A model generated the notes under the pieces. That model ran no database searches. It was not told the origin of the DNA and saw only the letters and a list, made by a program, of their open reading frames with translations. From assembly GCA_001792895.1 (NCBI GenBank), contig MARA01000002.1, positions 496,001 to 560,000 on the forward strand: a stretch of DNA of 64,000 nt, written 5' to 3'. The position numbers and the translations under genes are program-made. Origin of the DNA: Lentinus brumalis. Lineage: Eukaryota; Basidiomycota; Agaricomycetes; Polyporales; Polyporaceae. Position 1 is the first letter of the stretch, and each line of letters starts with the position of its first letter. Below are positions 649 to 33,027 of the stretch, in pieces.

Positions 649-902
649 ATGTCAAGTCGACACCCCTACTTTATGTGGGAAATGAACCAGCTACTCGCAC
701 TACTAACGCCTAATGCTCAATACAAGATACGGTATGTTGCTACTATGCTCATGATATTCATCTCTAACCATTTGTGGCAGCTTTCATTCTCTGAAGAAGA
801 AGGCTATCTCTTACTATCACCACCTCTGGAACTGTTCCGGTGTGTACTTATAGGAATATCCACAATTGTGTATACTCATTTCAGGAACTTGAGTATAGCT
901 AG
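649..902 (+). CDS. small hypothetical protein, three exons
   Basis: Exons 649-731, 781-841 and 885-902 join in frame across two short GT-AG introns (starting gtatgt and gtgtac, ending ggcag and ttcag) and end at TAG, giving about 53 residues with a basic, aromatic stretch (LKKKAISYYHHLW). The splice signals are the main support. No family is recognised. It could be a fragment of an older gene, since the bases after the stop keep open frames to 1089. Confidence 0.3.
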
Positions 903-1363
903 AGACAATCTATGGGAGCACTTTGACCGCAGTGACGTTCAGATATTGATTCATGTCAGCATTCATACTGAATGTCTTGATATGTATTGGGAAACCGAGA
1001 ACTTCATGAAATGGGCCACATACTACACGGATGACGTTGACGAGGACACTACTAGCATGGACACTTGCACAACATATGTTAACGAATAGACTGGTTGTCC
1101 ATTCAATACTATCGCTGTTGCAGTGTCCTATCATAGGCCATCTTGACAATCACCAACAAAGGAATCATTAAACAGCATTCGATATATTGGACAAAACAAG
1201 TTGTTTTCTACTGAGTGTAGTTCATGTAAGCCGTTCTCACGCAGACAGACCGCTTAAAAGCTGGCAAAGCATCATGCTCTTCACCTTCCTAGCATTCAAA
1301 CTGGTATGTTTCTGTGTACTATGTTACTCTCAATACCAACTGATGCTCGTGTGGCATAGCAAC

Positions 1364-2115
1364 ATGACAGATACTGGCTGGTACATCCCATGCCAAGTTT
1401 GTGGTCGTCCCTCTACAGGCCGATGTCCAACATGTTTGCAAGCATTTTACTGTGCTCAGACACACTTTGTGATGGTATGTTATGTGTTCCGTCATGTCAT
1501 TCAGTTTTGTGATATGTCTGCAGGGCTGGCAAGCTGGTCATTCGCAAGTGTGCCATGCAGACAACGGTCCACTCTTTCTATTTGATGCCACTGCTCTGCC
1601 CATCATGGGAGACCCAGAGCAGGTCATGGCACAACCAGAAGTGGCTGCATACATATTCCGTCCTGATCAAGGTAAGTGATAGATATATGTTATGATCTAT
1701 GCTGTCTTACTAACACACTCCTACAGAGCAACATGAAATCGTCAAAGTTCGCTATAGCGTAAATGTATCTGCCACGGAACAGCTTGTCCTTGCTCCTCAC
1801 ATCCTGCAGTACTTTGTACCCGGGAGTGAGGTGCAAAGTATGGTGCTGTATAAAGGAATTGGAGGCATGTCTTTGCATCTTCCTTTTGGAATTTGGTATG
1901 ATGCGCATGCTTTCCAAACACGCACTGCTCCCAACCGTGCCATTCGCCACTTAACCAGCAACACTGACCCATTGAAGACTTGGTACGGAGTTGTAATTGT
2001 GTTGAAGTTCACAGGGATCAGATGTTTGGGGTTCAGAGATGTACTCCCGGCAGATATCTGGACGTTGTCTTCATTTTTCATGTCAGTACCAGAACATATA
2101 GGGCTACAGATATAG
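1364..2115 (+). CDS. MYND-type zinc-finger protein (paralog 1)
   Basis: Exons 1364-1474, 1524-1671 and 1727-2115 give a continuous 215-codon frame. The MYND finger spans residues ~10-47: CQVC, then CPTC, then YC, then an HSQVC end. It is split by intron 1 exactly as in the paralog at 3989. MYND fingers normally mediate protein-protein contacts in transcription or ubiquitin pathways. The rest (residues ~60-215) has a globular C-terminal domain shared with the paralog, including a WYD motif and a W-G-V-V-I-V-L-F/R-F-G-RC core; its function is unknown. Start choice: ATG a few residues before the first Cys pair, as in the paralog. Introns begin gtatgt and gtaagt. Confidence 0.88.
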
Positions 2116-3988
2116 CACGATGCTCCAATGTATAACGTGAATTTGAAAACCATGGTCAGATCCAACTAGTCAATATAGATTATTAGAACATTACATCGTA
2201 TGACTCTGCAACGTATGGCATTATATATGCATTGAAGTTTATGACTGATGGTGGGGACTAGATGGTCAGGCGTACATTATCAGCTTGGGTGGCACCCTGA
2301 ACTCTAACCTCCTGCTATATAAGTATTGCAAGAGGCTTCTGGGCTGTTCCTGTGGACTCACACCACTAGCCTTCATAACACAGCCTCTCCCGGCCATTTG
2401 CCACAAATAATATGTGGCTTCATATAGGCACTGACACACAACTGTTGCAGACCAGCTCTCTCGTCTCAATAACAGCAAGAACTTCAGTAGTAAACTAGGT
2501 TTGCTGTTGTCAATGGGTTGTCGGTGAGTTGCACCTCACATCATTGTATGTCAGGGTGCTCCATATGGTACTATATGAGGGAGGTGCCTCATCAGATGAC
2601 GGTGCTCATAGCCAGGGGAAGGCGGCACTTGTTTTTGTATCCATAGACCCAGGTTATAAACAAAGCCCCCATACTCCGGAACAACTGCTCACTGCAACAC
2701 CTAAGCCAATAGTCACTTGCGCTACTCAAATCGGATCAGTCTGGGAATTAGTCAATACGATACTTGGTTGTTGTTCTTGAGTGAGTCTTTGGTTATTTTA
2801 TTAGATAGAGTACCACCATCGTTGTCTTTCTTATTGAGGCAAACAGACTTGGCCAGAGATCTGATCAGTGTAAACACTGACCAGTATCTGAGCAACTGGC
2901 TGTCTATGATTGGATGGCCCTACTATATGGCCAATGATTCTTTCTCTCGGATTCATCATGATTGCCGTACTGCGTTTCCCACAGATCTCTAACTGATTGA
3001 GATTTCTCCTTGCTCCGCTCTAGCACCACACTATTTTGGGCCGGCCATTGTTCTGTTGGAAATACGTTACAGCATAATTCAGGAGTGCTACTGATGATCT
3101 TTGATCCTCCCCCTGGAATTCTGATTGCCGCACTGTGCTTCACACAAGACCCTGACTGCATGAGATTTGTTGCTGTTCCTCTTTGTCAGTGAACTATTTT
3201 GAGGCCAGGTCTTCTTGTATTGAAGATTCATTACATCATAAGTTTGTCAGCCTGTCCTACGTGCACTACTGCATATGGAACAATCATGTCAGCTGCACGG
3301 TGAGTTCATGCCGACTGCCAGGTCCAACTTGCTGTAAGCACATGTTGTTTTACGCAATCATCAACTCCTGCGTCAACTCATGCATTTGTGGGTGTGACTT
3401 CTACTGGCTTGACTGTCATCATGCTTCCTCATGCAATAGAAGCTGCATGGATGTCATGTGGGCATGACTTTGGCAAGAAGGCTGACTTGAAGCTCATTGT
3501 CACTTGTAACAATATTTGGGCAAGACAGCTGTGCACGACTGTCCCCCTCATTGTGGCAAGGAGTCAGAGGTTCAACTAAACTCCTGCCCACCCTTGGTAT
3601 AGTTGTTGTGTCTCTGATGTATTCCAGCTACTATGCCGGCGAGTCGCAGTTCACGTTGCCATCAGTCATAACTAGCACATGCTGGAGGGAAGCACTTACG
3701 GAGTTATCACGCATGTGAACATGCCTTGAGTGACACACACCACCCAAGAAACTGTGGGAAACTGGGTGGATGTTTGTATCATGTGAGCATATAAATGGTC
3801 ATCGGACATCAGTCCTCCTCCACTCCACATTGATAGACTGCTGTCACCTATATAGTGCTGATCCTGCCTTGCATGCCATTTGCTTTCCCTACTTAGCATT
3901 CCATTTATCAGGTAGGGAGATATCAGTGCCTATAACAGTACATGTGCTAACAACAGGGCATATTCTTTTGCAGGGCTACATAACTGCC
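2116..3988. other. intergenic, contains a diverged dispersed repeat
   Basis: No supported gene. A TATA-like string (tatataag) occurs near 2316 but no convincing gene follows. The block near 3475-3720 resembles 10335-10690 (listed separately). Open frames here (for example 3183-3467 and 3770-4189) have no motif; the last overlaps the start of the second MYND gene. Confidence 0.5.
3475..3720 (+). repeat. diverged dispersed repeat, copy 1
   Basis: Shares ordered short matches with 10335-10690, for example a gctgactt...agctcat stretch, then (t/c)atttgggc, then cgactg(t/c)ccccctcat, then a gcacttacgga-like end. The order is conserved but identity is clearly below that of a recent duplication. No terminal repeats could be defined. 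Confidence 0.45.
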
Positions 3989-4694
3989 ATGTCAGACGCA
4001 GCTTATGCTCTGTGTTGGATATGTCAAGTTCCAGCCACCACACGGTGTATGGGGTGTCAGCAGGCATCATATTGCAGTCAACAACACCTTTTGCTGGTAC
4101 GTATACCGTGCTACTGTAAGCATCAAAATCAGTCTCATGGTATGCTAGGACTGGAATGCTGGACACTGGCAGAGATGTCGTCCAATTGAACCTCTCCCAG
4201 CTGTGCCTTATCAACCTCCCAGACGGACTCAAATTGAGTCTTTGTGGACATATGGATATATCTTCCATCCTGACAAAGGTGTGTGTGATGCAAATAATTC
4301 TGTATAATTACCGACCAAATTTGCAGAAGATGTTCAGCGCATTGCTGTGCAATACAAGCAGACACGCATTGATCGTTGTGGTCTTATACCCGTTCCTATG
4401 ATCCAACATTACTTCTCTCAAGACAGTCACCTGGACAGCCTAGTACTCAATACCGGGATAGCAAATGTCGAACTACGCTATCCTCTCAACGTATGGTACG
4501 ATAACAATGCTCTGGTAGCAGGAAGATGTCAAAATCGTGCTATCCTGCGCCTATGTGGATTGTCAAAGCCTGAAAAACCCTGGTGTGGTGTTGTCATTGT
4601 ACTCAGGTTTTCAGGCAAACGTTGCCGTGCATTCAAGGATGTGACTCTATCCGATTTGTCAACTATATCAGCATACTTTTCTGGTTATCGGTAG
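3989..4694 (+). CDS. MYND-type zinc-finger protein (paralog 2)
   Basis: Exons 3989-4096, 4149-4278 and 4327-4694 give 201 codons in frame. The MYND finger is complete: CWIC, CMGC, YC, then an H-x3-C end (GHWQRC) supplied by exon 2. Both introns fall where they do in the gene at 1364, and the C-terminal domain matches it (VWYD, W-C-G-V-V-I-V-L-R-F-G-RC), so the two are duplicates. The likely role is a nuclear or cytosolic adaptor; no enzyme domain such as SET is present. An F-box gene starts 180 bp downstream on the same strand. Confidence 0.88.
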
Positions 4695-4874
4695 ACTGTC
4701 GATCAGACTACTCGTGTATTTCAGAATGTTATGGTATCTTGCTGGATGATGACTTTATACGGGTGACCCACTATGTGATACTGAGAAATGGTGTGAATCA
4801 CCATTACCTAATGCATGCAGGTGACAAGTGTACTAATACACGGTTCACCCTTGACCCACCTACCACCATCCCCC

Positions 4875-6593
4875 ATGCCGATTTGCAACCTCGATGTGCT
4901 CTGTCAAATTCTCGCGTGGTACAACCGCGAGAGTTGGCACACCATTCATGATGGACCAGATGAGATTCGGACAAAGACTCTGTCATCTCTTGCTCGCGTC
5001 AACTCTACTTTCCATGTTCTTGCTACGACAATACTCTGGCAACACCTCGACTCTGTGATACCATTGCTTTCTCTGCTGTCCACTGTTGGTGCTATCAGAA
5101 GAGACGATCGGTGGGGGATACATACAGAAGTTGAACTTGAGTGTATCACCTATGTGAGCACCTACTGCAAATGTTATTGTTCTATGCTGATAAATCACCA
5201 GGGATTAACAAATGGGATATTGGAGGCAGATTGGAAACGGTTCTGCTACCACGCTGCCAAAGTGCATACCCTGGTTGTGGACGAACTTGAGCCCAAACTG
5301 GTTACCCAGCGAGTTGCTCCCACCACATGGGTATATATTCTCCATAAATTGGCTGGACGCACCCTGCTACCCCGTTTGCGATCATTGCAGTGGGACATCT
5401 CCAACCGTGGATGTACTGGCTTGTTATGTGTCCTCTCCCCTTCCATACGGATCTTGACCCTCAACTTCATCCATCCATGGCTTGGAGTATCTGACTACCT
5501 TGCGGATGAGTGGCGCTTCGCAATGTCAACTCTCCTCAACCAGACCTCACACCTCACTACAAACATTCACACACTCAACCTCACATTGGGAAGATTATAT
5601 ACACCATCGATGTTCAGTGCACTCCTGCACTACCAGAATCTATGCAACCTCGTCCTTCGATGTGACAAGGTCGATGCACAGTCCCATGGGATCAGTGTCT
5701 GTGACCTCTATAAACTAGGCACTTTGCCGCGGTTAATGGAGCTCACTGTAGACTGTCATTTCGACCTCTCTCCCTTTCCATCCGTGCCGTGTCCCGCAAG
5801 GTCCCCCTTTCAGGCTCTTCAAAATTTGTCGCTGCGAGACTACAGCGATATGGACCCCATCTATACCATCTTCGAGGGGTCATCGGTCATCAAACTCCAG
5901 GTCATTGTCCGGCCGTACCAGGATGCATTAACACTGCACCACCGTTGCAGTGTTTGGTCACAAACTTTCCCGCATCTTCTCACCTTCTCATGTGAAGTGG
6001 ACTATCCTGGCGCTGCAGTACCACATTCCTCCGATACATCATCACTATCCACCGCCATTCGCCCACTCCTCTCTCTACGCAGGATGGAGTGTGTCACAGT
6101 TGGCTTTCCCCAGCCGCAATACCATGTTACAGATGTTGATCTGGAGGACATGACACAAGCATGGCCTCGGTTGCAAGGTCTGGTTCTGCGTGGACACAAT
6201 GGCGGCACGGGTGCCCACAATGTTCCATCTCTTCCCTTGGTTACACCCACATTTGCCTCCCTCAGTCTTGCTGCATTCAACTGTCCAATGCTGAGGATCC
6301 TGACCCTCCCTGGCATATGCATCAGTTCAGCAGCTATACATCATGGTATTGCACCAAATGTGCACCGTCTTCAATATCTTCAAGTTTTCTCAGCATCCAT
6401 ACACGATTATGCACTTGCAGCACAGTGGATACACCACCTCTTCCCTGCTCTTGATGACACAGTGGTCACTGCAACTGGCAAGGTGATCAAGTCTGGGAGA
6501 GATGTTTCGTGGGTTGAACGAGCAAACTGGGTGGGTTGGGAGAGATTACTGCTTGAACTAAAGATTTATCGGGAAAGCATGGACACCATATAG
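4875..6593 (+). CDS. F-box-like / leucine-rich protein A
   Basis: Exons 4875-5153 and 5202-6593; the 48-nt intron (gtgagc...ccag) is a multiple of three, so the frame stays open even unspliced. The protein is about 556 residues. Residues ~5-70 form an F-box-like helical segment (LDVLCQILAWY ... SLARVNSTFHVLATTILW) of the degenerate type common in Agaricomycetes. The rest carries irregular leucine-rich repeats and a conserved D-x-D-L-x-x-M-x-Q-A-W-P block near residue 410. F-box proteins bring substrates to SCF ubiquitin ligases; the substrate is unknown. Paralogs B and C follow in tandem with the intron at the same codon (after Tyr of a Y-(V) motif). Confidence 0.85.
   Translation: MPICNLDVLCQILAWYNRESWHTIHDGPDEIRTKTLSSLARVNSTFHVLATTILWQHLDSVIPLLSLLSTVGAIRRDDRWGIHTEVELECITYVSTYCKCYCSMLINHQGLTNGILEADWKRFCYHAAKVHTLVVDELEPKLVTQRVAPTTWVYILHKLAGRTLLPRLRSLQWDISNRGCTGLLCVLSPSIRILTLNFIHPWLGVSDYLADEWRFAMSTLLNQTSHLTTNIHTLNLTLGRLYTPSMFSALLHYQNLCNLVLRCDKVDAQSHGISVCDLYKLGTLPRLMELTVDCHFDLSPFPSVPCPARSPFQALQNLSLRDYSDMDPIYTIFEGSSVIKLQVIVRPYQDALTLHHRCSVWSQTFPHLLTFSCEVDYPGAAVPHSSDTSSLSTAIRPLLSLRRMECVTVGFPQPQYHVTDVDLEDMTQAWPRLQGLVLRGHNGGTGAHNVPSLPLVTPTFASLSLAAFNCPMLRILTLPGICISSAAIHHGIAPNVHRLQYLQVFSASIHDYALAAQWIHHLFPALDDTVVTATGKVIKSGRDVSWVERANWVGWERLLLELKIYRESMDTI
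6556..6591 (+). repeat. 36-bp unit: 3' end of F-box gene A, original copy
   Basis: The last coding bases of gene A (6556-6591) recur without visible change at 6902-6937. Confidence 0.85.
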
Positions 6594-6771
6594 ATAGTGT
6601 GAGAGCATCCATGTTTTATGCTATTCATACTTTGGCAGAATACCCCAAGGGTGATACAAAGCTCATGGTGCAACAGCTCATATAGCTTCTCGAATGTGTC
6701 GTCGCTCAGGGCCCCATAAACAGTAATCAAATGCCCAAAATACCCTATATATGTTGTATTTTGCGTTATTT

Positions 6772-6902
6772 AAAACTTGTTGGAACTTTGAGACTGTACT
6801 TCCTTTGGGTCTCATTTGTGCTTGGATTATATCGCGCGCCCCCCTCGTATGTCTGTAACACCACCCTGCGACGTATACACTGTGGTCTTAGATGGTCCTA
6901 CA
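6772..6902 (+). repeat. direct repeat, ~130 bp, copy 1
   Basis: Begins aaaacttgttggaactttg and ends ggtcctac; copy 2 at 6939-7068 differs at only a handful of positions. Confidence 0.9.
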
Positions 6903-6937
6903 ACTAAAGATTTATCGGGAAAGCATGGACACCATAT
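6902..6937 (+). repeat. 36-bp copy of the 3' end of F-box gene A
   Basis: Matches 6556-6591, and sits between the two 130-bp repeats, which suggests it moved with the second repeat in one duplication. Confidence 0.85.
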
Positions 6938-6938
6938 A

Positions 6939-7068
6939 AAAACTTGTTGGAACTTTGAGACTGTACTTCCTTTGGGTCTCATTTGTGCTTGGATTATATC
7001 GCGCGCCCCCCTTGTATGTCTGTAACACCACCCTGCAACGTATACAATGTGGTCTCAGACGGTCCTAC
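6939..7068 (+). repeat. direct repeat, ~130 bp, copy 2
   Basis: Near-identical to 6772-6902; begins directly after the 36-bp copy of the gene A 3' end. Confidence 0.9.
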
Positions 7069-7292
7069 GATCCTGCAAGCTTGGGCGCCATGCGAGGCTC
7101 TGAAGTGTTACTTTCGCCATGTATGGGTGACACATCGGAGGGTTTTGATTGCATAGCATTACAGACAATCATGACAACAGCTGAATATGACCGGATGTGA
7201 TGAGGTAAGGCGGTTACCGTGTGAATAGAGCGTTAACAATATTCATCAATGATGCTGTGAGGTCATCATTATGACAATGCTGTGTACAACTG

Positions 7293-7302
7293 TATATATA
7301 AG
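7293..7302 (+). promoter_or_regulatory. TATA box candidate of F-box gene B
   Basis: The string tatatataag lies about 90 bp before the ATG at 7391, a normal distance for a TATA element with a short leader. Confidence 0.5.
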
Positions 7303-8263
7303 AAAGTCCAAACCATTGATCCTCGTGAACCATACACTTTGCCAGTACACCCACCTTCAATCACAGTCACTCTACACACACCTTATCATCATGTTCAAAC
7401 CACGGTATAATCACGACATTCTCCGTGAGATCCTCTCCTGGTACAGCACGGATGCATGGGTTTTTCATCGTGATGGCAACGAGGCTACACGTACCCAGAC
7501 GCTCTTGAACTTGAGCCTTGTCAGTGTCCTTTTCCGAAATATGGCCCTTCCTATACTGTGGTTCCACATGACCTCAGTCATGCCACTGTTGGAATTACTC
7601 TCCAACTTTCAACCCGTTACCAGGGATCAGGAGTTTGACCTGGAGCTTGCAAGAGAGGTTAATTATGTCGGCTATGTATGTTTTCTTTGAAGTCTCAGCA
7701 GTCGCAGGCCTCGCTCATTGCCTCTGGCAGGCTATTGTAGGGGATATCAAGCCTGAAGAATGGGAAAGGGTACACCATTATGGCATGATGATTTACGAAT
7801 TAGTCATGGACCAGACATGGTTCAGTCTATCTGTCATCCGCAGGGTTCATCCAAGTACCTGGACCCATATCCTCAGCAAGCTGGCTGGAAACATCCTTTT
7901 GCCCCACGTCAAGCTTCTCTGCTGGGACGTCACCAACCTGTATTGTCTAGCACCCCTTTGCCTCCTCTCGCCATCTATCATTGATCTGGATATCAACATC
8001 CTACATCCATGGCTGCCACAAACGGGCCGTGAACGGCATGAATGGCAGTTTGGATGTGCGTCCCTGCTCTCTGACGTGCAGCTGATGGCGAGCAATATCC
8101 ATACAATCAAGGTGTCGCTGGGTGGATTACATGCCCCCTCGTCTTTCATATCCCTTTCCAAATTCGGCAACCTTCGCAACCTCACAGTGACATGTGACAA
8201 CTCCATGACGGACACCGACAGAACATGCACTTATGGGGTCTACCATCTGGGGTCATTGCTTCA

Positions 8264-8271
8264 CCTGCAGC
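8264..8271 (+). repeat. 8-bp target site duplication, left (CCTGCAGC)
   Basis: Identical to 9203-9210 on the other side of the insert. An 8-bp duplication is the hAT superfamily signature. Confidence 0.92.
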
Positions 8272-9202
8272 TAGTGTTGCCGTGGAGTGGAGTCGGAGTC
8301 GCTCTGGAGTGTCGCCTATCAAACTCCGAGACACTCCAGAGTAACTCGGAGTCACTCCGGAGTCGTCACGTGATGGGTCGTCTGTGAGCCATCCATGCGC
8401 GACTTGTATCTTGTACGAGGGAAGACGAGGTGTATGCCAGAGAAATGTCGTCCAGCTGATGTATGTGGGTTTGGCGGAGTAGCTGATACACTTTGAAGTT
8501 CATGATGCCCAACTCAGGTGCGTAGAAGTATGTATGAGTTAGTGCACAATGCATGCGCACCTCAGGCTGCCGGGTCTGCACCCAATCTGCACTGGCTGCC
8601 GTCATTCCCTTCTGTAGCCAAAGGCTTGAAGAGCACCTTACCTGAGTATCTCCGCTGATGACAGCTGCTGTGACTATGCTATCCGACGTGTGTTGGGCCC
8701 AACAGTCCACCCTGATCTTCGAGCTTATGTATCCGGGTACGTGCCTCGCGATCCTAAGGTGAGGTACAATAGTACGCTGCAACTTCTTTGCTACAAAAGC
8801 GAGCGTTTTATCGCGGGAGGACGTCGACTGCTAGCTTCGCGCTGCTTGAGCTGTTGATCGAGGCAGTCGCGATGATCACTGCGATTACTTGCACCACAAA
8901 GTCGTTGGACGGGCTCGTAAGTGCTTAATTTATATAAATACGCTATATCACGATGTCAGTACAGGTTTCTGCGTGCTGGAGATCAGCAGACGCGTCCATA
9001 GTTGTCGCGTCGCGTTTAGAAACGTGACCGCGCTCGACAGACACACCATTCATTTAGGCGCTAATGTCCAGTTTGCCGTTGATCTATATACCATATCTGG
9101 CACTCCAGCACGCTCCGGAGTGACCTGGAGTGATGGGCGCCGAGAGGCTGCCAGAGCAGAGTGGAGTGCACTCCGGAGTGCTCTGACTCCACGGCAACAC
9201 TA
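8272..9202. mobile_element. non-autonomous hAT-type DNA transposon in F-box gene B
   Basis: Ends are TAGTGTTGCCGTGGAGT on the left and its exact reverse complement on the right, flanked by the 8-bp direct repeat CCTGCAGC. Subterminal regions are rich in repeated ggagt/actcc words (several CTCCGGAG-like palindromes at 8285-8365 and 9105-9185), as expected for transposase-binding sites. At 931 bp it is too short for a hAT transposase, and its open frames (for example minus 8366-8782) show no transposase motif, so it would need a transposase in trans. Confidence 0.9.
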
Positions 9203-9210
9203 CCTGCAGC
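9203..9210 (+). repeat. 8-bp target site duplication, right (CCTGCAGC)
   Basis: Second copy of the 8-bp target; the interrupted reading frame resumes directly after it. Confidence 0.92.
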
Positions 9211-10109
9211 AACTGACCTTGGACCTCGATTTGGACTCCGAACACTCCTCCACTGCCATTGCTCCACCTCAGCTACCTCAGCCATTGTTTCCCAGTCTTC
9301 GCCAGATCGCGCTCAGAGACCGTCCAGACACTGGTCATGCATATCAGATGATTTCATCTGTTCCTCTTGAAGAGCTGCAGGTAGCCATACACCGATATGA
9401 GGATGTTGGAACATTTCGTTCCCGATGTCTTATATGGGCCAAAATCTTCACTCGACTACGTGTCCTGCACCTCGACTTTGATCATCTTGCCCTCGACCCA
9501 CCATACTACAGTGACATAACGTCACTATCCTATGCCATCGAGCCTATATACTCCCTTCACGAGTTAGAAAGGGTGGTCCTAAAGATACCCCTTCCGGACA
9601 TCACTCTCGAAGATTCCGACTTGGAGAAGATGGCACAGGCATGGCCCATGTTGACATCTCTCATGTTGCAGACCCACAATAGGCCGTATGTCCGTGACTC
9701 ACCAGACTCCTGCACCCTCACATTCAATGGGATCCTACTCCTTACATCATGTTGCCCTCACCTCATTGCCCTGCTCCTCCCCAAGCTGTACATTCCAGCT
9801 GCAACTGCCATTGAGGTCCAGCTCGAGGCATTCACTCCCCATGGTCTGCGCTATTTGGAGGTGTCTGCTGCAATTTTACATGATCACGCCCTTTGTGCAT
9901 CATGGCTGGACAGATGCTTTCCTGACCTGGATAGTGGTGTATCTCTCACAAAAATGGGTCCCTTACAATACCAGGGCCCTACTGTGATGCGGTTAGAAGA
10001 GTTGGTTGCATCTGATCAGTGGAACCAGGTGCTTCGTGAACTGACAGGGCGTCGGGAACGTAGACATGGCCAATGTGATGTGAAAAATGGAAAAGCATGT
10101 GTTCACTAG

Positions 10110-10867
10110 TACAGTCACTACATTTGTAATCTCTTCACCATTTTGGGTTTTGTTGCACCCAGTGGACTAGAAAACTGACATTGTTTTTCCGTGTATTTGA
10201 TCCACATATGGTTTGATTGTGAAGGTGCAGATCTGTTGAATGTGATGCTGGAGGGAATGAGTGCTTGCCCGCAGTGTAGCATCCCTGGAATTGTTGTTGT
10301 GTAAATGGGCAGCTTATCCATACATTAAGAAGACGGGCTGACTTTTAGCTCATCGTCTACAGCAGCTCACTCATCATCGGGAGTACCGGCGCAGCTACAG
10401 TACCTGGTGAAAATGTCAATTTTCACGAGGTTCGGTTCGGGGCCTCTGGGGCCCGCTAAACGCATTCCTTCCACTGATGGTGTCGTGTGCAACCTGTAGC
10501 AGCATTTGGGCCAGTCAGCCATGCCCGACTGCCCCCTCATCGTGGCAGGACTTAGCTCCTTGCCCGACTCTTGGCCCACCCTCTGTGCGCCAATGAGCAT
10601 GTCAGTGAGTCATAGCTTACATCACCATCAGTCACAGCCGGCACACTCCGGACGGCGCTTACAGAAGTTGAGTCAGAGTCGGGACGGAGTCAGCGCGCAG
10701 CTGAACAGGCCCTGAAATGACTCTCAATATTATATGTGTCATAGTGTCAGCTATATTTGTCAAGTCCAAGACTGATTGGTAATTCATAAAACTGCAGCCG
10801 ACAAGCTTGACCGCCCCTGCACTGTCGGTTGTCACTTCCTTCCTACTGCCCCCTCTTGATCATCGTC
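10110..10867. other. intergenic between F-box genes B and C
   Basis: No gene seen. Holds the second copy of the diverged repeat found near 3.5 kb. Confidence 0.55.
10335..10690 (+). repeat. diverged dispersed repeat, copy 2
   Basis: Colinear but diverged match to 3475-3720; both copies lie in spacers of this cluster. Confidence 0.45.
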
Positions 10868-12611
10868 ATGCCCCAAACGTATTGCAATGCTGATGTCCTG
10901 CGGGAGATCATATCCTGGTACAGGTTCGAGCATTGGTCTTACTTACGTGATGGCGAACAGCGAACACGTACGGCGACACTGTCAAGTCTTGCTCGCTCCA
11001 GCACTATACTCCGTGACCTGGCCCTCCCGGTTCTTTGGAGACGGATGGAATCAATAATGCCATTGCTTCAATTGCTGTCTACGTTCCTACCTACTAGCGC
11101 AAGCAAGGAGAGAGAGATTGAGCGAGCGCAGGACGTGGTTTATGTCAAATATGTGCGTGCATCTAAGCAGTCAAAGTAGAACTGAGAGTGTCAACTGAGG
11201 TTGTTAGGGTCTCACTGGACCCATTCTTCACGCAGATTGGGATAGGATGCGCTACTATGCCGCTATGGTCCGTCAGCTATTTGTGGAGGAGATGCGATTT
11301 GGATCTCTCGTCCTCAAGGTCCATTTAAGCACATGGGGCTGCATACTCATGAGGTCTGGAGGATGCACACTGCTGCCCCGTCTAGACACTCTCCACTGGG
11401 ATGTCACCGATGAATCGGGACTGCCAACATTGTGTTTTCTGGCACCATCCATCCACGATCTTCTGCTCCGGTTCCGTCACCCATGGTTGTCTCAAAGGGG
11501 CCAAGAACGGAAGGACTGGCAGTTTGGCTGCTCCTCTCTGCTGTCAAATGCCTCTCTGATAACCGACAAGGTCAACACCCTCAGTATCCTCCTGGGCACC
11601 CTACAATCACCTTCCTCCTTTATTGTCATTGCTTGTTTCCACAATGTTCGCATTCTCACAATCACATGCGACTACCTCCTATTGGGCACCATGCGGACAG
11701 AGACAGCCGGAATCTACCATTTGGGATCATTGCTTCACCTTGAGCAGTTGATTCTGAATCTCGAGTTTGAGCCGGAGCATACATCCCCTCCATCCACTTC
11801 ACAGCATCTTCCCATCCCGCTCTTTCCATCCCTTGGTCGCCTGGTTGTCAGAGACCACCCAAGCACCGGACATCTGTACCAGATATTCAAGGATGCCCCT
11901 CTCATACACCTTGAAGTGGAGACATTCCATTATGAGGACATCTCCATATACCGGGAACGGTGCCGGTTATGGGCTTGTACCTTTGCACAGTTGCAGATCT
12001 TCCAGTGCTCCTTGGACCATCTTTCAGTGGATCCTCCTTATGAGATGGATGCCTTGCCACTCTCAGCTATCATCGACCCACTCTTCAACCTCCACTGCAT
12101 TCATACAATCATTCTTGACATTCCCTTTCCCGACATACACTTTGAAGACATGGACCTCACACGCATGGCAGCGGCATGGCCTAAGCTCACAGAGCTTATG
12201 GTAGATTCGCGCGAGCGACCCTTTGTCCACCATTCGATGGATAGCTGCATGATCACATACAATGGGTTGCTGCAGTTGACATCGAGGTGCCCGGAGCTGA
12301 CTTGGATATCACTTCCAATGTTGTATCTTTCTGCGGAGACGGAAAAAGAGGTGAGGTTGGATGACATTTCCCCCCACAACTTACGCTTTTTGAATGTGTC
12401 TGTGGCTACGGTGCACGATTACGCATTATGTGCAGAGTGGTTAGACACCTGCTTTCCGCACCTCGATGACGGTGGTCCAGTTGTGGATACAGATGTGGAA
12501 CGGCATAATGGAAGGGTATTAGCACATTGGAAGGGCATGTATATATCTTCGAGTTGGAATTGTGTGCTGGAGGAGTTGTATAAACGGCGTAACCATAGTG
12601 TATATATGTAG
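10868..12611 (+). CDS. F-box-like / leucine-rich protein C
   Basis: Exons 10868-11152 and 11208-12611. The acceptor (gttgttag) was chosen because it restores the same G-L-T...IL-x-ADW sequence that follows the intron in gene A. The protein is about 562 residues: an F-box-like N-terminus (ADVLREIISWY ... SLARSSTILRDLALPVLW, residues ~7-60), then irregular leucine-rich repeats ending in an EYAL/DYALCAEWLD block shared by all three paralogs. It is the intact counterpart of the broken gene B, closest to it in the WQFGC(S/A)SLLS and HLGSLLHL blocks. Predicted SCF substrate adaptor; the target is unknown. Confidence 0.86.
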
Positions 12612-14759
12612 TTTATGGACATTACATACATTATCATTCCTTCCCTTCTGGTTCTGCAAGTGTTGCTACAGCGCTGTCTCCCCTTCGGAGACATCTTCTC
12701 TCACCCCGTTGCCATCCTCCTCCACTTTTTGTGCTCCCTTCTCTACAGGGAGTACTATCTCTCGAGCCCGCTCAGACATGTCAATGTCAAGGTCTGAGCT
12801 CGAACAGAACATCCCTCTTGCACCTCCTCTTGAGCTTCCACTCTGCCGACGAAGAAATATTATCCCTCCTATGCTGCAGGAAGAAAATCTGCGGGCCGTT
12901 CCTACCACTCCATCGGCAATGTCGCAAATCATCTTATGGATCTTACCGAGCTACGGTAAGATGGGTAAGATGGTGTAAGCCGTACGCTGTTTGGTTATGT
13001 ACCCATCCCCTCCTAAGATCAACTGAACTTATAGGACATCTTCCGAGCAACTTACAAGGAACTTAGGTGAAACATTAGAAAAGACCACAAGCCCTATACA
13101 GGGTCACAAGGCGACAGCTTCTTTATCACACAGAGCTTGGACGTAAACATTGCATTCGAATACAACTACAACATACAACTGCCTGTACGCATACAATATA
13201 CCTCCTTCCACACAATGATAATGCGCTCCGAGGAACGCACCCTCTACAGTGGCAGGCAATCAGCAGGCGGGTCACAGCTGGATAGGGAACTTACCTAATG
13301 CAGGAGGACATCAAACACGAGGCTGAGCGCACAAGCCCTGGACATACTCGGGGAGTTGTCGACCATGCACTATTGCACGCGACCACAACGAGCGAGCACA
13401 TACAGCATCTGGGGAGGGCAAGTCAGCATGTGACAACGATGATGCATGGAGCACGTACCTGTCTCAACCTGTTCGGACACAACAATCGCGCCCATTGTGT
13501 GAACTCCTTCGTTCTCGACTCGCCGGTGCCCGTGCCCGCAGAACTGGTTCCCGATCTTCTGCGTGCTCAGTCTCACCGCTAGCAAAAAGGCATGGTACAT
13601 GGTAGCGATGACTGCTGTATGACCTGTACTCGGGGAGTGCAAAACTGTGACAGCAAGGACAGAAGGCAAAACGTAGGGGAAGTAGGGGAAAGGGTGCTTG
13701 CGGCATGCAAATAATGACAAAAGGACTTACCACTGATCTCATCATCGAATCGCGCTCAGCTCCTCCAATCCATCGCTGCCCAATCCACTCCTATTGCCGT
13801 GTGATCATGGATGGATTCACAGCAAAGACCCAGAAGGCCCGATAAGCGGCAGCAGGAGCAGTTCATGCGAGAGGAAAGCGATAGGTCGATGAAATTTAAG
13901 CTCAAGTACCAGCAATGTGTTCTATACAGCTGAGGCTAAGCCAGGAGTGGAGGATGTAGCAGGAAGACACCAGAGAGCCTGGTGGGAGTCAAGCATGGTG
14001 CTGGCGAGGTTCGAGTGGAAGTTGCCGGTTAAGCTTAGGGCAGGCCTTACCTCACTTCAACCGCAGACTTTACAATGTTTTGCACGGCTCCAGCATGCTA
14101 TACTGTCTCATCCACGCAAACCACAAACTTCTCGATGCTTTGGTGGTTCTATCAGTCAGCAATCACACCACCTTACAGGACTTCAACGTGGGTTTCAGGT
14201 GAACCTTTGCCGCACTTTGGTGTTTATATGTGTAAGTTCTGTAAGACTCTAAGATGCTGGTAAGTCGAAACATCATAAGTTCTAATATGTCCAGTAAGTT
14301 GTAAGACCTCGTAAGATACAAGAGCGAAGAGCGTCGAGTACGATAGCTGCGAGCGCAACACGCTTTGTAATGACGTCATTCAAGCCTGAGGCGATGAAAT
14401 AGGTGGGAATAGCATGAGTCATAACTTGCAAGCTCCCTGGATTGGGCCAAAGCTTTGATAAGGTAGTCGTGAGAAGAAGTTCAACCAAGCAAGCTGGTAT
14501 GTAAGCAGCTTACAGCTTACAAGAACACTAAGTAGTGCACATGGGAACCATGTGGCCAACGTGGCGTCCATGTGAGTCTCGCATGTTCGCCAGGGGCTCG
14601 GCTAACCCCGACGTCCCATTCTTTTTGGAAATCATGAGCATTTGTCAGCCCTTCAAGAGGGGAAGTTGTTGTTTGCCCATCACATTTCACGATCAGTTCG
14701 AGTGGTGTCAGCCACCACATCATCATACCTGTGCCTCTCTCAAGCGTATAGTGCCGCTC
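12612..14759. other. long intergenic stretch, no feature seen
   Basis: About 2.1 kb with only short overlapping open frames on both strands (longest about 138 codons, 12562-12978). None has a motif or clear splice-linked partner. Confidence 0.5.
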
Positions 14760-15749
14760 ATGGCAGATCTGGATGCTCCAGTGATCCCACCACCAGAAAG
14801 AAAGTTATCCGCACAGGAATTACACTGGTGGCATATTCTCGCAGTGCCCGGCAATGAACTCTACAAGCCTGAGGTTCATTTAATATAAGCTGTGTCGAGC
14901 TCATCATTAACGTTACTACAGACCAACTTGTGTGGCAATTTCAGTATAGACCCACCATTGGCCATCACTGACACCACACTGTCGGTTGGCGGGTCACTGA
15001 ATGGTGTCAACTATACCAATTGTGAAATATCCGTGCGTGTACCATATCAGGTGAGCAATGGACATATACCTCTGGAGATATTCTCAAGTCACATGCAGGA
15101 GTTGATGTCTTCATCTTCGCAAATACATGAAGGCCATGATGGTTATCATACAGATCCCTCAGATCCATCTGCTCTTCACTTGCCACACCCTGCACCAATT
15201 GGCAGCCAGATATTCCTACCAGAGGCAGAATGTTCTGTGGTGTCAGACGAGTTAAATACGGTGCACCAGATCATCCTCGATGCTACACTGTTTCCATTTG
15301 TCACTGACGTATCTATGTATGCAGTATGAACCCATATGCCTCGAGCGAGGATGTGGGAAGTTATTTGCGAATAAGCATACGCTCAAGAGACACCTATACC
15401 GCTTCCATGGTCTCGGTAGCATTCAAGAAAAGTACAAAGGCAGTAAGTGATGTTGCTCCAGCACAGAACATGTATGATGTCGATAACCCTGTGATATTTT
15501 CTAGCATATGCGTGCACATTTGCAGGTTGCACCAAGTCGTACTGGACCCCTTATACTCTCCGTCACCATACAATGAATAAGCATGCAACTAAAGGTATGC
15601 CTCCTGCAGACATATTCTAGACTCACTCACAAGTTCAAATGGCAGCATACGATTGCTTCTACCCCGGATGTGGGAGGTCCTTCACCTCTGTTCGGGGTGC
15701 CAATCAACATTCTGCGATGGTACACCGATGTATGAATGAATGTACCTAA
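14760..15749 (+). CDS. C2H2 zinc-finger protein with three fingers
   Basis: Six exons (14760-14873, 14922-15050, 15099-15260, 15325-15442, 15505-15594, 15646-15749) splice into one 238-codon frame; every phase agrees. Each of the last three exons carries one C2H2 finger: C-LERG-C...HLYRFH, C-TFAG-C...HHTMNKH and C-FYPG-C...HSAMVH. Introns separate the fingers one per exon, an orderly layout. The N-terminal ~145 residues are Ser/Thr/Pro-rich without a known domain. Likely a sequence-specific DNA-binding protein in the nucleus. The first two introns have weaker donors (gttcat and gtgagc), so the exact N-terminus is less sure. Confidence 0.8.
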
Positions 15750-17104
15750 GAGACAACGAAAGAGCCATCTATTACTGGAACCATGTAACCATAGCATTTA
15801 ACAAATTGTGCCATCCTGGAATGATGGCTACAATACGCAGCCTCTGAGAGAGCATGAGCTTAGCGCGGCAGCTGACATGGTCGGGAGGCTGCGTACATTG
15901 GGTGCCTGCTTGAGAATCACTACATCTACCTTGTCCATGTCTTTGTGGTCAAGATACTGGCAGAACAACCCGTCCACGTCTGGTACACCCCGGGCCACTG
16001 CAATGAGCTTCTGGTGGCTTCTGATGCCAATATCCAGGAAGATTGGTAACATGTGCAGCATTGGCATGACCAGACTTGAAAAGAACTTGTTGAGGTCACC
16101 ATTGCATGCATCTGCGTGGGATCGAGGAATGGGATGGACAGACTCGTTAGGTCTCGCTATGCGAGACGTGGTGGCCACTGGCAACGGACGTGACGAGAGC
16201 TTGGAATATGCCGCAACCCGCTGCAATGGACATCAGACGTGTCGGCAGGGTGTTTCTGTCTCGGTGGGGTGACACTAATGCATCAGCAGCAGTTTGACGT
16301 ATGCCATATACGGCCAGCAGTTCGGATAGGTGTTCACCGCTGGCACGATGATGATGATGATCATAGATCATAGATTATAACGGCATGAGGCTGGTTACGG
16401 CCGAACTTGCCACTTGTGCAATCCTACACTAGGCTGACTCGATGGCGATACTAGTACTAGTAAACCGTAATGTGGTGGGACTTGGAAATTTTAGCTAGAT
16501 ACTTGGATCCCTCACGCAGTGTATGGCATTGCCACTGCGTAACACCTCTGTAGTGACTGTAAACACCCCGAGCTTCTGCTTGTTGTCCCATGAAGCATTG
16601 GCTGTTGGACATGGGACGGATCCGGAACATGGCATCGCTGCGGCGTAAAGCCTCCGTCAATGACCCTGGGCTCCCGCTTGTCATCGCATGAAGCATTGGC
16701 TATCAAAGATAGAACTGAGTCAGAATGCGGCATGCTGCTGTGTAAAGCCTCCGTCAATGACCCTGAGTGTCTGTCTGTCATCCTACAAAGCATTGGCTAT
16801 TGGATATGTGACTGATCCGGAACACGGCATCGCTGCTGCGTAAAGCCTCCGTGAATGACCCTGAGCTTCTGCCTGTTGCCTGATCATCTCAGAATGCAAA
16901 TTACACCCTCCGTGTTTACACAGCAGGTAAGTGTATTGTTTGTAATATGTAGGCAAAGTGCTTAGTGAGGTAATTACAGGTAATGGAATTGTTCACTAGC
17001 ATTATGTCCTGTAATGGTGTCTGTTAGCGTATCTAGGACATAAAGAGTGATTGTTTGGTGGCTCATCAGCTACAGTCGATGACAAGCCCCCAAGCGCTCT
17101 TTCA
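15750..17104. other. intergenic, contains a tandem array
   Basis: No gene is supported. Open frames at 15808-16272 (plus) and 15828-16226 (minus) overlap and lack motifs. The tandem array is listed separately. Exons of the next zinc-finger gene may begin just before 17105. Confidence 0.5.
16569..16882 (+). repeat. tandem array, ~98-bp unit, about 3.2 copies
   Basis: The word aagcattggct begins units at 16593, 16691 and 16788 (period 98 then 97), and gtaaagcctccgt(c/g)aatgaccc recurs in each unit. A partly degraded unit precedes the array. Units are diverged from each other at many sites. Confidence 0.85.
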
Positions 17105-17800
17105 ATGCCGCCATATTCTCTGCACACAACAACAACACCTCAGCCTGTGGAGCCAATACCAATGGCAGCTAATCCGTGCACTGTTGCAGTTGACCAGTAT
17201 CAACCAGTGGATGTTGACGAAGAAGCAAACACTCATCACCTTCATGACTACAAGCAAGGTCTCACCTCTACACATGGAGTGGTGGTGAACAGTGCTGCTG
17301 TTGTATCCAGCCAGATTGATTGTTTTCCCAATGAAGCACCTCATGGTGGGTACCCTCAGCCATTGGAACACTCAAATGCTTACATTTTGCCTGGGCCCTG
17401 CAGCGCACTCTCAAATGGAATCTGTTGGAGAGAATTCTCTAGCACCCATGCCTGTGCAGGTCACCTGGGTGATATACACCTACTCGGAAGCGAGGCTCAA
17501 CTCACAGCTGCAATATCGCCAGACCGCAGTTGATCATCCTGCTACCCTGCACAAAAAGTTTCTATGTGTTCTATGTCTACGCTCCTTCTGCTCCCCGTAC
17601 AACGTGCATCGCCACCATAAAATACACACCAAGCAAGAGCCGTTTGCCTGTCAAGGTGGATGCGGAAAGAGCTTTATGAGGAAGGACACACTGCGAAGAC
17701 ATCAGGTATGGCATACGCCAAGTAACATGACCACCGCTGATGTTTCTATGTGTAGGTTAGAAAGAATTGTGGTATTAAGGAGCCAAGTCAGTCAGCATGA
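17105..17800 (+). CDS. C2H2-type zinc-finger protein with two fingers
   Basis: Exons 17105-17345, 17404-17705 and 17756-17800 join in one 195-codon frame. Finger 1 is C-VL-C...HRHHKIH. Finger 2 is C-QGG-C-GKSFMRKDTLRRH, and splicing of the last intron turns its end into H-x5-C, a C2HC variant. The first ~110 residues are Pro/Ser/Thr/Gln-rich and low in structure, typical of a fungal transcription factor. Upstream exons ending at the ctacag near 17083 are possible. It lies 1.36 kb from the three-finger gene on the same strand, but similarity outside the fingers is not obvious. Confidence 0.72.
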
Positions 17801-18873
17801 AGCAGCCATATGGGAATATAATGAAAGTATACACTAGTATATGTACAAGTGCTGTAAGTATAAGCTTCGCTTGTACTGGGTCTCATGGGCTCCTCTGGTG
17901 CTTATTCCATTTCACAAGAGTGCGAGTGAAGGCTTGTTTGGAATTTACATCAGTAAGTTGGGAAAATACTGAGAGCATTGAGAGACACTGAGAGACACTG
18001 AGAGACACTGAGAGAACTGGTGGCACTGGCAGTGCAAAGCTCACCTTGTTCAGAGCTCCGTACAGTTGTCCTCCAACAGAATTGGCTTCAACTTCGTAAA
18101 TTGTACCTTCTACACATTGCGGCTCCCTTATTCAGGCATACTTGTTTATACGCTTTCTGCGCAGCTGGATCTACTATATATTTGGATGATTTACCAGTCA
18201 TCGAGCCACATAAACCTTTCAGAGTCTTTCCATACACATGAGTCTTGTATGTCCATTCGAGAGAAGACCGTGCAGTGACGAGGGCTGACTTGAAGGTTTG
18301 CATGCTTTTCCGCACTGTGCTGTGGAGTGCTTACTGCCACCGCACGGACGGTGGTCTTAGTAAATTGCGAGGTTTCTGATGGGCAGCAAAACGTAAGTCG
18401 CACGTTGATAGTCCACTCATTCAATTGTCTCCCCTCAGACAGAACTGAGAAGGGAAATTTAACCCGCCGCAGTTGATGTCGACCACCCGGCCTAAGTGCT
18501 GACCAAGCGCCTTGCGAAGCCGCATGCGGACTGAAATGCAGTGCTTGTAGTATCATGTTGTACTTATCGTGTATGGATCTTGCCTGAATCCCACGACATC
18601 AGCCTCACCGAGCCCCTCCACTTGAGCATTCAGTACTACCCCATGAAGGACACAGCAGTACGACAAACGGGAGCAGTCTCCGGAGTGTCAGCAGTGGCCG
18701 ACCACTGTCAGCAGGGCAGTGCCGCCAGGATCCAATCGGGGCCCTCGACCCGTTCCAATCATTATGAAGTGCTTCCCGCCTTGCGGGCAGAGCTCGGGCA
18801 CACAACACCTTACCAGAAAGCATCCTTGCCTACTCCGCCAAAGGTGAAGTGAGGAGTGCCGGAGCGGGATAAC
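17801..18873. other. intergenic with a short minisatellite
   Basis: No gene called. An open frame at 18541-18852 might hold upstream exons of the fork-head-like gene, but splice evidence is weak. Confidence 0.45.
17981..18010 (+). repeat. 10-bp minisatellite, three perfect units
   Basis: Three perfect copies of agagacactg, flanked by decayed units on both sides. Confidence 0.9.
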
Positions 18874-19678
18874 ATGCTCACAGATAAGTATTATGACTCT
18901 TTGCAGCTCGCGCCTGGAGAATGCAAGACATTTTACCAGGCTGATGTGACCGGCTATAGCTGGGGCACGTTGATCGTATTTCGACTGGACCAGAACGGCT
19001 GTGAGTACAGTATAGCTTTCTGTTGAAGAGCGCCGTGTTGAAGGGTTGTGGTACAGACACATTGCGATACTGGGGGGAGCATTACACTCCCGCGTTGTCG
19101 CACGACCGCATCGGCTACGATGTTCGAAACTTTGTCAATAGCAAGACTCCGCCCGCGCACGAGGTCTACAGACGCCTTGGCATGTCCGGCGAGAATCATG
19201 AGGTGGGGTTGGACCTTATTCCTCCTCCACCTAAGGGTGGCAAACCCCGATGTGCCTGGACGACGCTGTGCCTGCTCGCCCTGGTCAGTGCACCACGACG
19301 GTGTCTCCTCGGTTACGAGATCATTGCACTGCTCATGGGACACTATTCCTATTTTCGTGAGACGACAACTATGAGCTGGGTGGTACGTACTTGTTCGCGC
19401 TCGGAGCCACTCAGTTTGACAACACTGACCCGTGCTCGTGGCAGAATAAAATATGGAACACGCTTTATAATGGGCGTCGCGAGTTTGCCTCGCTGCCAAC
19501 TCCATATGATCTGGATGCCGCTGAACGAGTGTGGTATATCGACTATACTGATTGTAGTCGACCGCCTTCACCTCCTCCTTATGGGGCCTGCCTCTATCCG
19601 CTGTACGACCATCGCAGAAAGGCGCGTGCCAAGCAGTCCCCGTCCCCTGCGTCCTCTGAGGTAATTGGCGGGGAGTAG
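18874..19678 (+). CDS. divergent fork-head (winged-helix)-like protein
   Basis: Exons 18874-19000, 19057-19382 and 19445-19678 give a continuous 228-codon frame. Residues ~103-187 resemble a fork-head domain: G-K-P-R-C-A-W-x-x-L-C, a helix with LTL-like L-L-G-Y-E-I-I, Y-F-R-E, then S-W-V-N-K-I-W-N-T-L across the intron-2 junction and E-R-V-W-Y-I-D-Y where the family has the S-Y-W-x-L-D strand. Splicing intron 2 is what brings the second half into frame. The canonical H-N-L-S-L recognition helix is altered to N-T-L-Y-N, so DNA specificity, if any, would differ. The basic, Ser/Pro-rich tail suits a nuclear protein. The similarity was judged by eye; a profile search would decide it. Confidence 0.6.
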
Positions 19679-19984
19679 GGTTTGGTGGTATCACTTACTT
19701 ATGTGTGATAGGTTTCACTGTGGTGTATGAGGCTGTGCCTGTGCTTATTGCCGTTCAGCAGGTTTAATACGCGGACTTCGCTCCGGCGTTGGGCACTTGG
19801 AGCGGCAAAATTCAATGTATAATCTGCTCAGGATACACCAATGTCGTGGATGAGGTGATCTCGATGCTGAACTCGGTGTCTAACGATCTGTCGGAACAAT
19901 GCGAATTACTTGAACCGCTGATGTCCGTCCCTCCCAGGTATCCGCCATAAAGACAGCCGGAGGTCAGAAAGAAGAAATGTATAG
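19679..19984. other. short spacer before the LINE relic
   Basis: Nothing recognisable. Confidence 0.5.
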
Positions 19985-26456: not shown

Positions 26457-26931
26457 ATGCAGCTGCGCCGAAGGGTAAGAGTCTTGATGTTACGAGGCAA
26501 AGCATGCGCTGACTCGGCCTCAGCATATGCAGATTGTGCATGCGTATAGGTGTGGAATTTCCTCACCTGCGGACCTCAGAATGATACTCGTCGAGCGTTG
26601 CCACGGCCCCGATGGCGCGGACGTCCCACGGCTACATGGGGAGTGGACGGCAGACGGTCTATGGCGGACGTTCCTGGTCAATATCCCGAGGCCCGAGCAA
26701 GTGGATGGCAAACAGCTCACATCTTTCGAATTCCATGTGAGATGGGCTTCGCAGGTTGGTGACGCGACCAACACGGGGCTGCAGAATCCGGCAGATCGGG
26801 GCTGTCCTGCTGTTCGCGCGGAGTTCATCGTGATCTGCCGCGGTGCTGGTTGTGATCGGCGGCTTCTGAGCATAGGAGGAATGGACCGCCAGCTCGCGGA
26901 ATCAGCAGTCATCGTGTACGTGGTCCGCTGA
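26457..26931 (+). CDS. hypothetical protein, weak model
   Basis: Exon 26457-26474, a 49-nt intron (gtaaga...ctcag), and exon 26524-26931 read through 141 codons. An open frame extends upstream of 26457 to about 26384, where another acceptor-like site occurs, so the true start may lie further left. The product is a mixed alpha/beta-looking sequence with F-x-V-N-I-P and F-E-F-H-V strands; no family recognised. A long open frame on the opposite strand (26520-27365) is an alternative but has unusual composition and no splice support. Confidence 0.33.
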
Positions 26932-32804: not shown

Positions 32805-32975
32805 GTCTTGGTACGGTAGCTGACAAAATCGGTGATCGTCGCGTCGCTCGCAGACTTTGCCATTGCGTAGTCCTTAATGTACCAGGGCTGTACCGGTGGT
32901 GATATTGGAATCATCATATGTACGTTTTTGTCTGGAGCTATTGATGTGATGTCATAGGCTTTGAGTGTCAAATGG

Positions 32976-32982
32976 TATAAAG
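32976..32982 (+). promoter_or_regulatory. TATA box candidate
   Basis: tataaag about 50 bp before the ATG of the small gene at 33028. Confidence 0.5.
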
Positions 32983-33027
32983 CGTCTGCTGCAACTCGAG
33001 AAAGATCAAAGATCCCATCCATTCACA

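What the first reader, a model, noticed from the sequence alone, without database searches (positions are those of the whole stretch)
8264..9210. Precisely delimited hAT-type insert inside an F-box gene
Exact 17-bp terminal inverted repeats, an exact 8-bp target duplication (CCTGCAGC) and a coding frame that continues across the gap show one clean insertion in gene B. The insert plus one target copy is 939 nt, a multiple of three, but has internal stops. Perfect ends suggest it is recent. Subterminal ggagt/actcc words point to a transposase active elsewhere in the genome.
Basis: partly seen in the sequence, partly recalled or inferred. Interest (0 to 1): 0.75.

Follow-up and report, generated by a model that had tools for sequence, protein, structure and literature searches.

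The report
Fresh jumping-gene insertion breaking fungal gene
A 931-base jumping element of the hAT type, unable to move by itself, has landed inside a probable F-box gene so recently that a near-identical second copy of the region in the same genome assembly still shows the unbroken target site.

Summary
The element is 931 bp (8272-9202), with exact 17-bp terminal inverted repeats (TIRs) and an 8-bp target duplication, CCTGCAGC. Two tests settle the reading. Contig C131 of the same assembly, best read as the second haplotype, carries the gene with one CCTGCAGC and no insert, in flanks about 99.9% identical. A related protein in a public database reads straight across the site. The assembly holds three copies, each with its own 8-bp duplication. 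A complete 4.1-kb element on C72 shares the first 11 bp of the TIR, has an 8-bp duplication and encodes a hAT dimerisation domain, which places the insert in the hAT superfamily.

Perfect ends are no clock here: 140 bp at each end are identical in all three copies while the copies differ by up to 2.4% overall. And no transposase element with the same ends was found.

Extra: the other haplotype carries a different hAT insertion 5.5 kb away, with an empty partner site; and hAT families here repeat family-specific words that are also built into their TIRs.

The parts
8264..8271 (.). left target site duplication CCTGCAGC
   Evidence: single copy in the empty haplotype L065
8272..9202 (+). 931-bp non-autonomous hAT element
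   Evidence: 3 copies in the assembly, each with its own 8-bp TSD
8272..8288 (+). left terminal inverted repeat TAGTGTTGCCGTGGAGT
8289..8365 (.). left subterminal array of GGAGT/ACTCC words
   Evidence: 8 words outside the TIR in the first 150 bp, 0 of 20,000 shuffles reach it; first 140 bp identical in all 3 copies
9102..9185 (.). right subterminal array of GGAGT/ACTCC words
   Evidence: 6 words outside the TIR in the last 150 bp, 0 of 20,000 shuffles; last 140 bp identical in all 3 copies
9186..9202 (-). right terminal inverted repeat
9203..9210 (.). right target site duplication CCTGCAGC
7391..8263 (+). 5' part of the interrupted F-box-like/LRR gene (gene B), including a short intron near 7675-7730 (intron limits inferred by eye)
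   Evidence: ORFs; weak PF12937 in the first exon; 97.5% identical to P0002 over 202 aa
9211..10109 (+). 3' part of gene B, frame intact to its stop
   Evidence: 98.3% identical to P0002 over 288 aa
2799..2806 (.). TATTAGAT, empty target of a different 4,847-bp hAT element that sits in the other haplotype (C131)

Best explanation
A low-copy, non-autonomous hAT transposon of 931 bp inserted by cut-and-paste transposition, catalysed in trans by a hAT transposase, into the coding sequence of an F-box/LRR-like gene. An 8-bp staggered cut duplicated CCTGCAGC. The reading frame now runs through 38 insert codons into a stop, so this allele should make a protein lacking about 300 C-terminal residues. 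Shown: the element, its limits, its sister copies, the empty haplotype and an uninterrupted relative. Inferred: that the transposase recognised the TIR core together with the GGAGT subterminal words, as BED zinc fingers do in Hermes; and that the allele is non-functional.
For: Exact TIRs and TSD. Three copies at 97.6-99.35% identity, each with its own perfect 8-bp TSD: CCTGCAGC, CATGTATC, GTTCCAAC. Empty site on C131 with one CCTGCAGC; C131 is colinear with C49:483550-517941 at both of its ends, with 17 mismatches and 6 gap openings over the 17,780 bp compared. P0002 is continuous across the site. The complete element at C72:47940-52040 has TIR core TAGTGTTGCCG, TSD GACTCGCC and PF05699 Dimer_Tnp_hAT at E 5.1e-11. 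Of 30 hAT-domain loci examined, 7 have a TAGTGTTGC end just downstream of the domain and facing it (orientations worked out from it).
Against: No transposase with the same 17-bp ends or GGAGT words was found, so the catalysing enzyme is not identified. The element has no recognisable transposase remnant: two of its open stretches, 138 and 117 codons, have no Pfam match and no database relative. No RNA data, so loss of function is inferred. No empty site is held for the other two copies.
Confidence: 0.96

Rival explanations
1. The insert is real but is removed from the transcript as a long intron, for example from GT at 8274-8275 inside the left TIR to AG at 9208-9209 inside the right target duplication. 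This keeps the frame, adds one leucine (LLHLQLQLTL) and leaves the gene functional.
For: The splice is in phase with no premature stop; a CTGAC branch-like sequence lies about 20 nt upstream of the AG. Further donors with a somewhat better match to GTRNGT exist at 8341, 8380 and 8384 (2 of 3 positions each). hAT ends acting as splice sites are known for maize Ds (recalled).
Against: Being in frame is unremarkable: 180 of 1,080 donor-acceptor pairs tested keep an open frame, because the last part of the insert is open in the gene's frame. The donor GTGTTG matches 1 of 3 scored positions, and no usable pair matches 3 of 3 (the consensus is recalled). A 936-nt intron is far longer than the gene's own short intron near 7675-7730 (limits inferred).
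Confidence: 0.06
2. The 931 bp are an ancestral part of the gene (exon or intron) that C131 and the related protein's gene lost.
For: 939 nt is a multiple of three.
Against: 9 in-frame stops; target duplication; two sister copies at other sites with their own TSDs; the empty haplotype is exact to the base, whereas hAT excision usually leaves footprints (recalled); P0002 lacks it.
Confidence: 0.01
3. The element belongs to another superfamily that makes 8-bp duplications, such as Zisupton (KDZ) or P.
For: Zisupton also generates 8-bp TSDs (PMC12730594, passages). The element encodes no transposase of its own to decide the matter.
Against: Its TIR core and end architecture match a complete element that encodes a hAT dimerisation domain and has an 8-bp TSD.
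Confidence: 0.03
4. C131 is not the other haplotype but a very recent segmental duplication, or a contig from a second strain in the culture.
For: Divergence is only about 0.1%, and the assembly origin is unnamed.
Against: C131 is only 38.9 kb and colinear with C49 at both of its ends, as expected of a haplotig. Either way the insert postdates the split of the two copies.
Confidence: 0.15

Closest known systems
Scooter of Schizophyllum commune (Fowler and Mitton 2000; only the reference entry in PMC5428507 was seen; details recalled)
   Same: By its title an active transposon that disrupted two genes in a basidiomycete; recalled as a short non-autonomous element with 8-bp duplications.
   Different: Sequence and TIRs were not compared here; the paper was not read. 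Here only three copies exist and the evidence is an empty second haplotype, not a mutant phenotype.
Ds elements of the maize Ac/Ds system (recalled)
   Same: Non-autonomous hAT element moved in trans, 8-bp TSD, insertions in coding exons, possible splice sites in the ends.
   Different: No partner element found here; TIRs and subterminal words differ (recalled, not compared).
Complete hAT element at C72:47940-52040 of this genome
   Same: TIR core TAGTGTTGCCG, 8-bp TSD, subterminal words that continue the TIR word.
   Different: Word CGAGT instead of GGAGT; 4,101 bp with hAT coding sequence; no blastn match to the insert at E up to 0.1.
Hermes (PMC10368747, passages)
   Same: Subterminal repeats bound by transposase BED domains; on the Hermes right end one such repeat lies within the TIR.
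   Different: Different words and host; here several families in one genome share a core and differ in word.

Membership tests
hAT superfamily | 8-bp target site duplication | tested here: met
   3 of 3 copies have perfect 8-bp TSDs; the empty site has one copy. Not exclusive to hAT
hAT superfamily | short TIRs with hAT-type ends | tested here: met
   17-bp TIR sharing its first 11 bp with both ends of a hAT-domain element
hAT superfamily | subterminal repeats at both ends | tested here: met
   named among the defining features in PMC4890040 (passages)
hAT superfamily | a hAT transposase gene in an element with the same ends | tested here: inconclusive
   Found for the 11-bp core with a different subterminal word (C72); none found with the full 17-bp end. 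The insert itself shows none
MITE | short, non-coding, TIR-bounded | tested here: met
   931 bp; two open stretches searched, no Pfam match and no database relative at E up to 0.01 (8 and 5 candidates)
MITE | high copy number of a homogeneous length | tested here: not met
   Only 3 copies (931, 943, 951 bp) found in 53.4 Mb; hence called a non-autonomous hAT element, not a MITE
F-box/LRR protein (host gene) | F-box motif plus leucine-rich repeats | tested here: inconclusive
   PF12937 E 0.023, below cut-off, in gene B exon 1 only; none in the other pieces of genes A, B, C. Model of paralog gene A: mean pLDDT 61.8, N-terminus mostly below 50. Foldseek top three are TIR1, FBXL2 and COI1 entries at TM 0.27-0.33 by query length, followed by mixed LRR proteins

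The most novel reading that the evidence does not exclude
The hAT families of this fungus use a modular end code: a common outer core (TAGTGTTGC) for cleavage plus a family-private word of about 5 bases that closes the TIR and is repeated through the subterminal region (GGAGT, CGAGT, CAAGC, GGTCC; CGGGT behind a different core). The insert would then be an orphan: its GGAGT address has no reader that I could find in this assembly, yet it moved after the two haplotypes split.
Probability: 0.35. Interest if true: 0.55.

Novelty: new member of a known kind. Interest (0 to 1): 0.42.

Why it matters
It is an unusually complete case: insertion, empty second haplotype, uninterrupted relative and sister copies, most of it from one assembly, with a second hAT element polymorphic the other way round 5.5 kb away. 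That points to recent hAT movement in this fungus inside a tandem F-box-like gene array. The shared-core, private-word pattern makes a direct test possible of how hAT transposases tell their own ends from those of relatives in the same nucleus.

Tried and rejected
Transposase remnant or captured gene in the interior: the 138-codon minus-strand ORF (8366-8782) and the 117-codon plus-strand stretch open in all three copies (8850-9200) gave no Pfam match at E up to 1 and no database relative at E up to 0.01 among 8 and 5 candidates. Against 31 hAT-region loci (L034-L064) blastn gave six rows, all of one 21-base stretch of the end against C85 at E about 0.08, and the translated search one row at E 0.36.

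A partner element: 103 places match the TIR with up to 3 mismatches, but the reversed control gives 117, so beyond the six exact ones they are noise; 100 of the 103 are listed, and reading that list I found no further inverted pair within 10 kb. 12 places match ACTCCGGAGT-N(1-30)-ACTCC; 9 are inside the three copies and 3 are isolated, control 10. Searches with the 140-bp ends alone find only the three copies, plus three weak inverted self-matches.

Empty sites for the other two copies: 500 bp of left flank searched for each gave no second allele, so they are uninformative. Naming the species failed: two protein hits without names. My first alignment of copy L009 was in the wrong orientation and was replaced. 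A donor scan stopped one base short and missed GTGAGC at 8384; one search replaces it.

Literature: (titles and abstracts in listings; one search found none), and for the ten letters TAGTGTTGCC anywhere: 24 papers, 10 listed, none of those 10 about transposons by title. The library holds only open-licence papers, and I make no claim of absence from print.

Full report
OBSERVATION. The element runs from 8272 to 9202 (931 bp). Its first and last 17 bp are exact inverted repeats and differ from base 18 on. CCTGCAGC flanks it on both sides at 8264-8271 and 9203-9210. The coding frame of gene B reads ...YHLGSLLHLQ before the break and QLTLDLDLDSEH after it. The 939 nt between hold 9 in-frame stops, the first at 8385.

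COPIES. The assembly that holds the window (G000, 53.4 Mb, 136 contigs) has the exact 17-mer six times, as three inverted pairs. A search with the whole element finds the same three copies and no others (that tool calls its counts lower bounds). Their flanks show perfect 8-bp duplications in 3 of 3: CCTGCAGC (window), CATGTATC (C94:62479-63421), GTTCCAAC (C49:3023271-3024221). Pairwise identities are 99.35% (window and C94, 6 mismatches in 921), 97.63% (window and the other C49 copy, 22 in 928) and 97.88% (C94 and the other C49 copy, 20 in 943).

ENDS ARE NOT A CLOCK. All 22 variable columns of the three-way alignment lie between columns 143 and 713 of 954; so narrow a range arose at a rate of 7e-5 in 200,000 random placements. 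The range statistic was chosen after seeing the data and rests on three copies. The outer 140 bp at both ends are 100% identical in all three copies. I read this as conservation of the cis-acting ends. Perfect TIRs could therefore be seen in an older insertion of this family too.

EMPTY SITE. A search with the 3' half of gene B found a 99% match on contig C131 (38,940 bp) with a 491-codon open frame. The fetched stretch (L065) is the same locus without the insert...TTCACCTGCAGCAACTGACC..., one CCTGCAGC. C131 aligns with window 844-2806, 2799-8271, 9202-10228 and 12628-21941, with 3, 6, 0 and 8 mismatches over 1963, 5474, 1027 and 9316 bp: 17 in 17,780, and 0, 1, 1 and 4 gap openings. Its last 1000 bp match C49:483550-484550 at a printed 100%. 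C131 positions 9301-11699 and 25001-37940 were not compared. The span is 632 bp longer on C131 than the two insertions explain, so at least one more length difference lies in the part not compared or in small gaps. C131 is best read as the haplotig of a heterozygous or dikaryotic genome. The insertion is thus derived, and younger than the split of the two haplotypes unless recombination brought it in.

SECOND POLYMORPHIC hAT. At window 2799-2806 (TATTAGAT) the C131 haplotype carries 4,847 bp (C131:18191-23037) bounded by TAGGCAATGGCACGGGTA inverted repeats and a TATTAGAT duplication; the window haplotype has the empty site. Two Dimer_Tnp_hAT hits fall within it (C131:19831-19971 and 19683-19805). 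So the two haplotypes differ by hAT insertions in both directions within about 6 kb.

SUPERFAMILY. An 8-bp TSD alone does not prove hAT; Zisupton makes one as well (PMC12730594, passages read). The link comes from this genome. C72:47940-52040 is a 4,101-bp element with TAGTGTTGCCGCGAG at both ends and TSD GACTCGCC. It encodes PF05699 at E 5.1e-11 and a sub-threshold hAT RNase-H match at E 0.07; five other ORFs of it had no match. Among 30 hAT-domain loci cut out, 7 have a TAGTGTTGC end downstream of the domain and facing it: C85 (two), C35, C104, C82, C72 and C48. C54 has two such ends near a domain but facing away. Of these only C72 was followed to its other end. 14 of the 44 hits were not cut out; two of those 14 lie in loci already held (C131, C60).

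MODULAR ENDS. For 12 ends of nine elements (both ends of the window, C72 and C131 elements; one end of C48, C85, C35, C104, C82 and C54, the last not tied to a hAT domain) I counted five words in the 122 bases after base 18. Own word against foreign words: window GGAGT 7 and 6, foreign at most 1; C72 CGAGT 7 and 6, foreign at most 2; C131 CGGGT 10 and 10, foreign 0; C48 CAAGC 7, foreign 0; C85, C35, C104, C82, C54 GGTCC 8, 3, 5, 2, 8, foreign at most 1. In each end the most repeated five-letter stretch of the TIR recurs more often than in shuffles (0 of 2000 reach it in 11 ends, 6 of 2000 in one). For C35, C104 and C82 that stretch is TCCGG, not GGTCC, and in several ends the single commonest subterminal five-mer is an overlapping one outside the TIR (for example CACTC in the right window end). 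The words were picked by looking at these ends. The pattern, outer core plus inner word repeated inwards, agrees with what is known of Hermes, whose BED domains bind subterminal repeats and whose right end has one inside the TIR (PMC10368747, passages), and with Tgf2 (PMC4890040, passages). To me it seems less usual to see several families of one genome with one core and different words; I did not survey other genomes.

ORPHAN STATUS. No element with the GGAGT end and a transposase was found: up to 3 mismatches in the TIR give a count at the level of the control (103 against 117); the word-cluster search gives 9 of 12 places inside the three copies; 140-bp end searches give only the three copies.

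HOST GENE. Genes A (4815-6593), B and C (about 10868-12611) form a tandem array of paralogs, A and C being 35% and 46% identical to the 3' half of B. The F-box label has weak sequence support (PF12937 E 0.023, below the curated cut-off). A four-sequence model of gene A is low in confidence (mean pLDDT 61.8) but shows alternating strands and helices, and its best fold matches are entries of TIR1, FBXL2 and COI1 at low TM-scores, with NLRP3, ribonuclease inhibitor and other LRR proteins following. On C131 gene B has one base fewer at window 9809, which shifts its frame. This may be a sequencing error; if real, neither allele is intact.

FUNCTION. The most likely effect is a null or truncated allele: 38 codons of insert and a stop. 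The rival that the element is spliced out in frame (8274-9209, one added leucine) is open but weak: 180 of 1,080 donor-acceptor pairs tested keep an open frame, so the in-frame property is not a sign of design, and no such pair has a donor matching all three scored positions.

VERDICT. A real, precisely delimited and recent insertion of a low-copy non-autonomous hAT element; ordinary in kind, well documented by its own second haplotype, and of some extra interest for the shared-core, private-word ends and the missing partner.

Noticed in passing
window 2799-2806; C131:18191-23037: Empty site in the window haplotype for a 4,847-bp hAT element (TIR TAGGCAATGGCACGGGTA, TSD TATTAGAT) present in the other haplotype.
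   Followed up: yes
window 9809; L065: One-base difference (CC against C) in gene B on C131, a frameshift in the allele that lacks the transposon; real or a sequencing error.
   Followed up: partly
C72:47940-52040 (L064 141-4241): Complete hAT element with perfect 8-bp TSD GACTCGCC, 15-bp shared TIR start and a hAT dimerisation domain on the minus strand.
   Followed up: partly
C131 against C49:483550-517941: C131 is 632 bp longer than the two known insertions explain; the stretch C131:25001-37940 was not compared.
   Followed up: no
window 6772-7068: A repeat of about 130 bp in two copies 167 bp apart, 96% alike, between genes A and B, shared with C131.
   Followed up: no
window 16565-16876: A local repeat of about 215 bp at 75% identity, about 98 bp apart, seen in the C131 comparison.
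   Followed up: no
L009 177-845, minus strand: The third copy lies about 650 bp from the apparent start of an aldehyde-dehydrogenase-like reading frame (recognised by eye, not searched).
   Followed up: no
C1:3807473 and C71:8197; C51:719400 and C65:450515: hAT-domain hits with identical scores on pairs of contigs, perhaps further haplotigs or subtelomeric duplicates.
   Followed up: no
L060 2588 and 3045: Two TAGTGTTGCAGGGTCC ends in the same orientation 457 bp apart on C54, facing away from the nearby hAT domain; perhaps nested or tandem elements.
   Followed up: no
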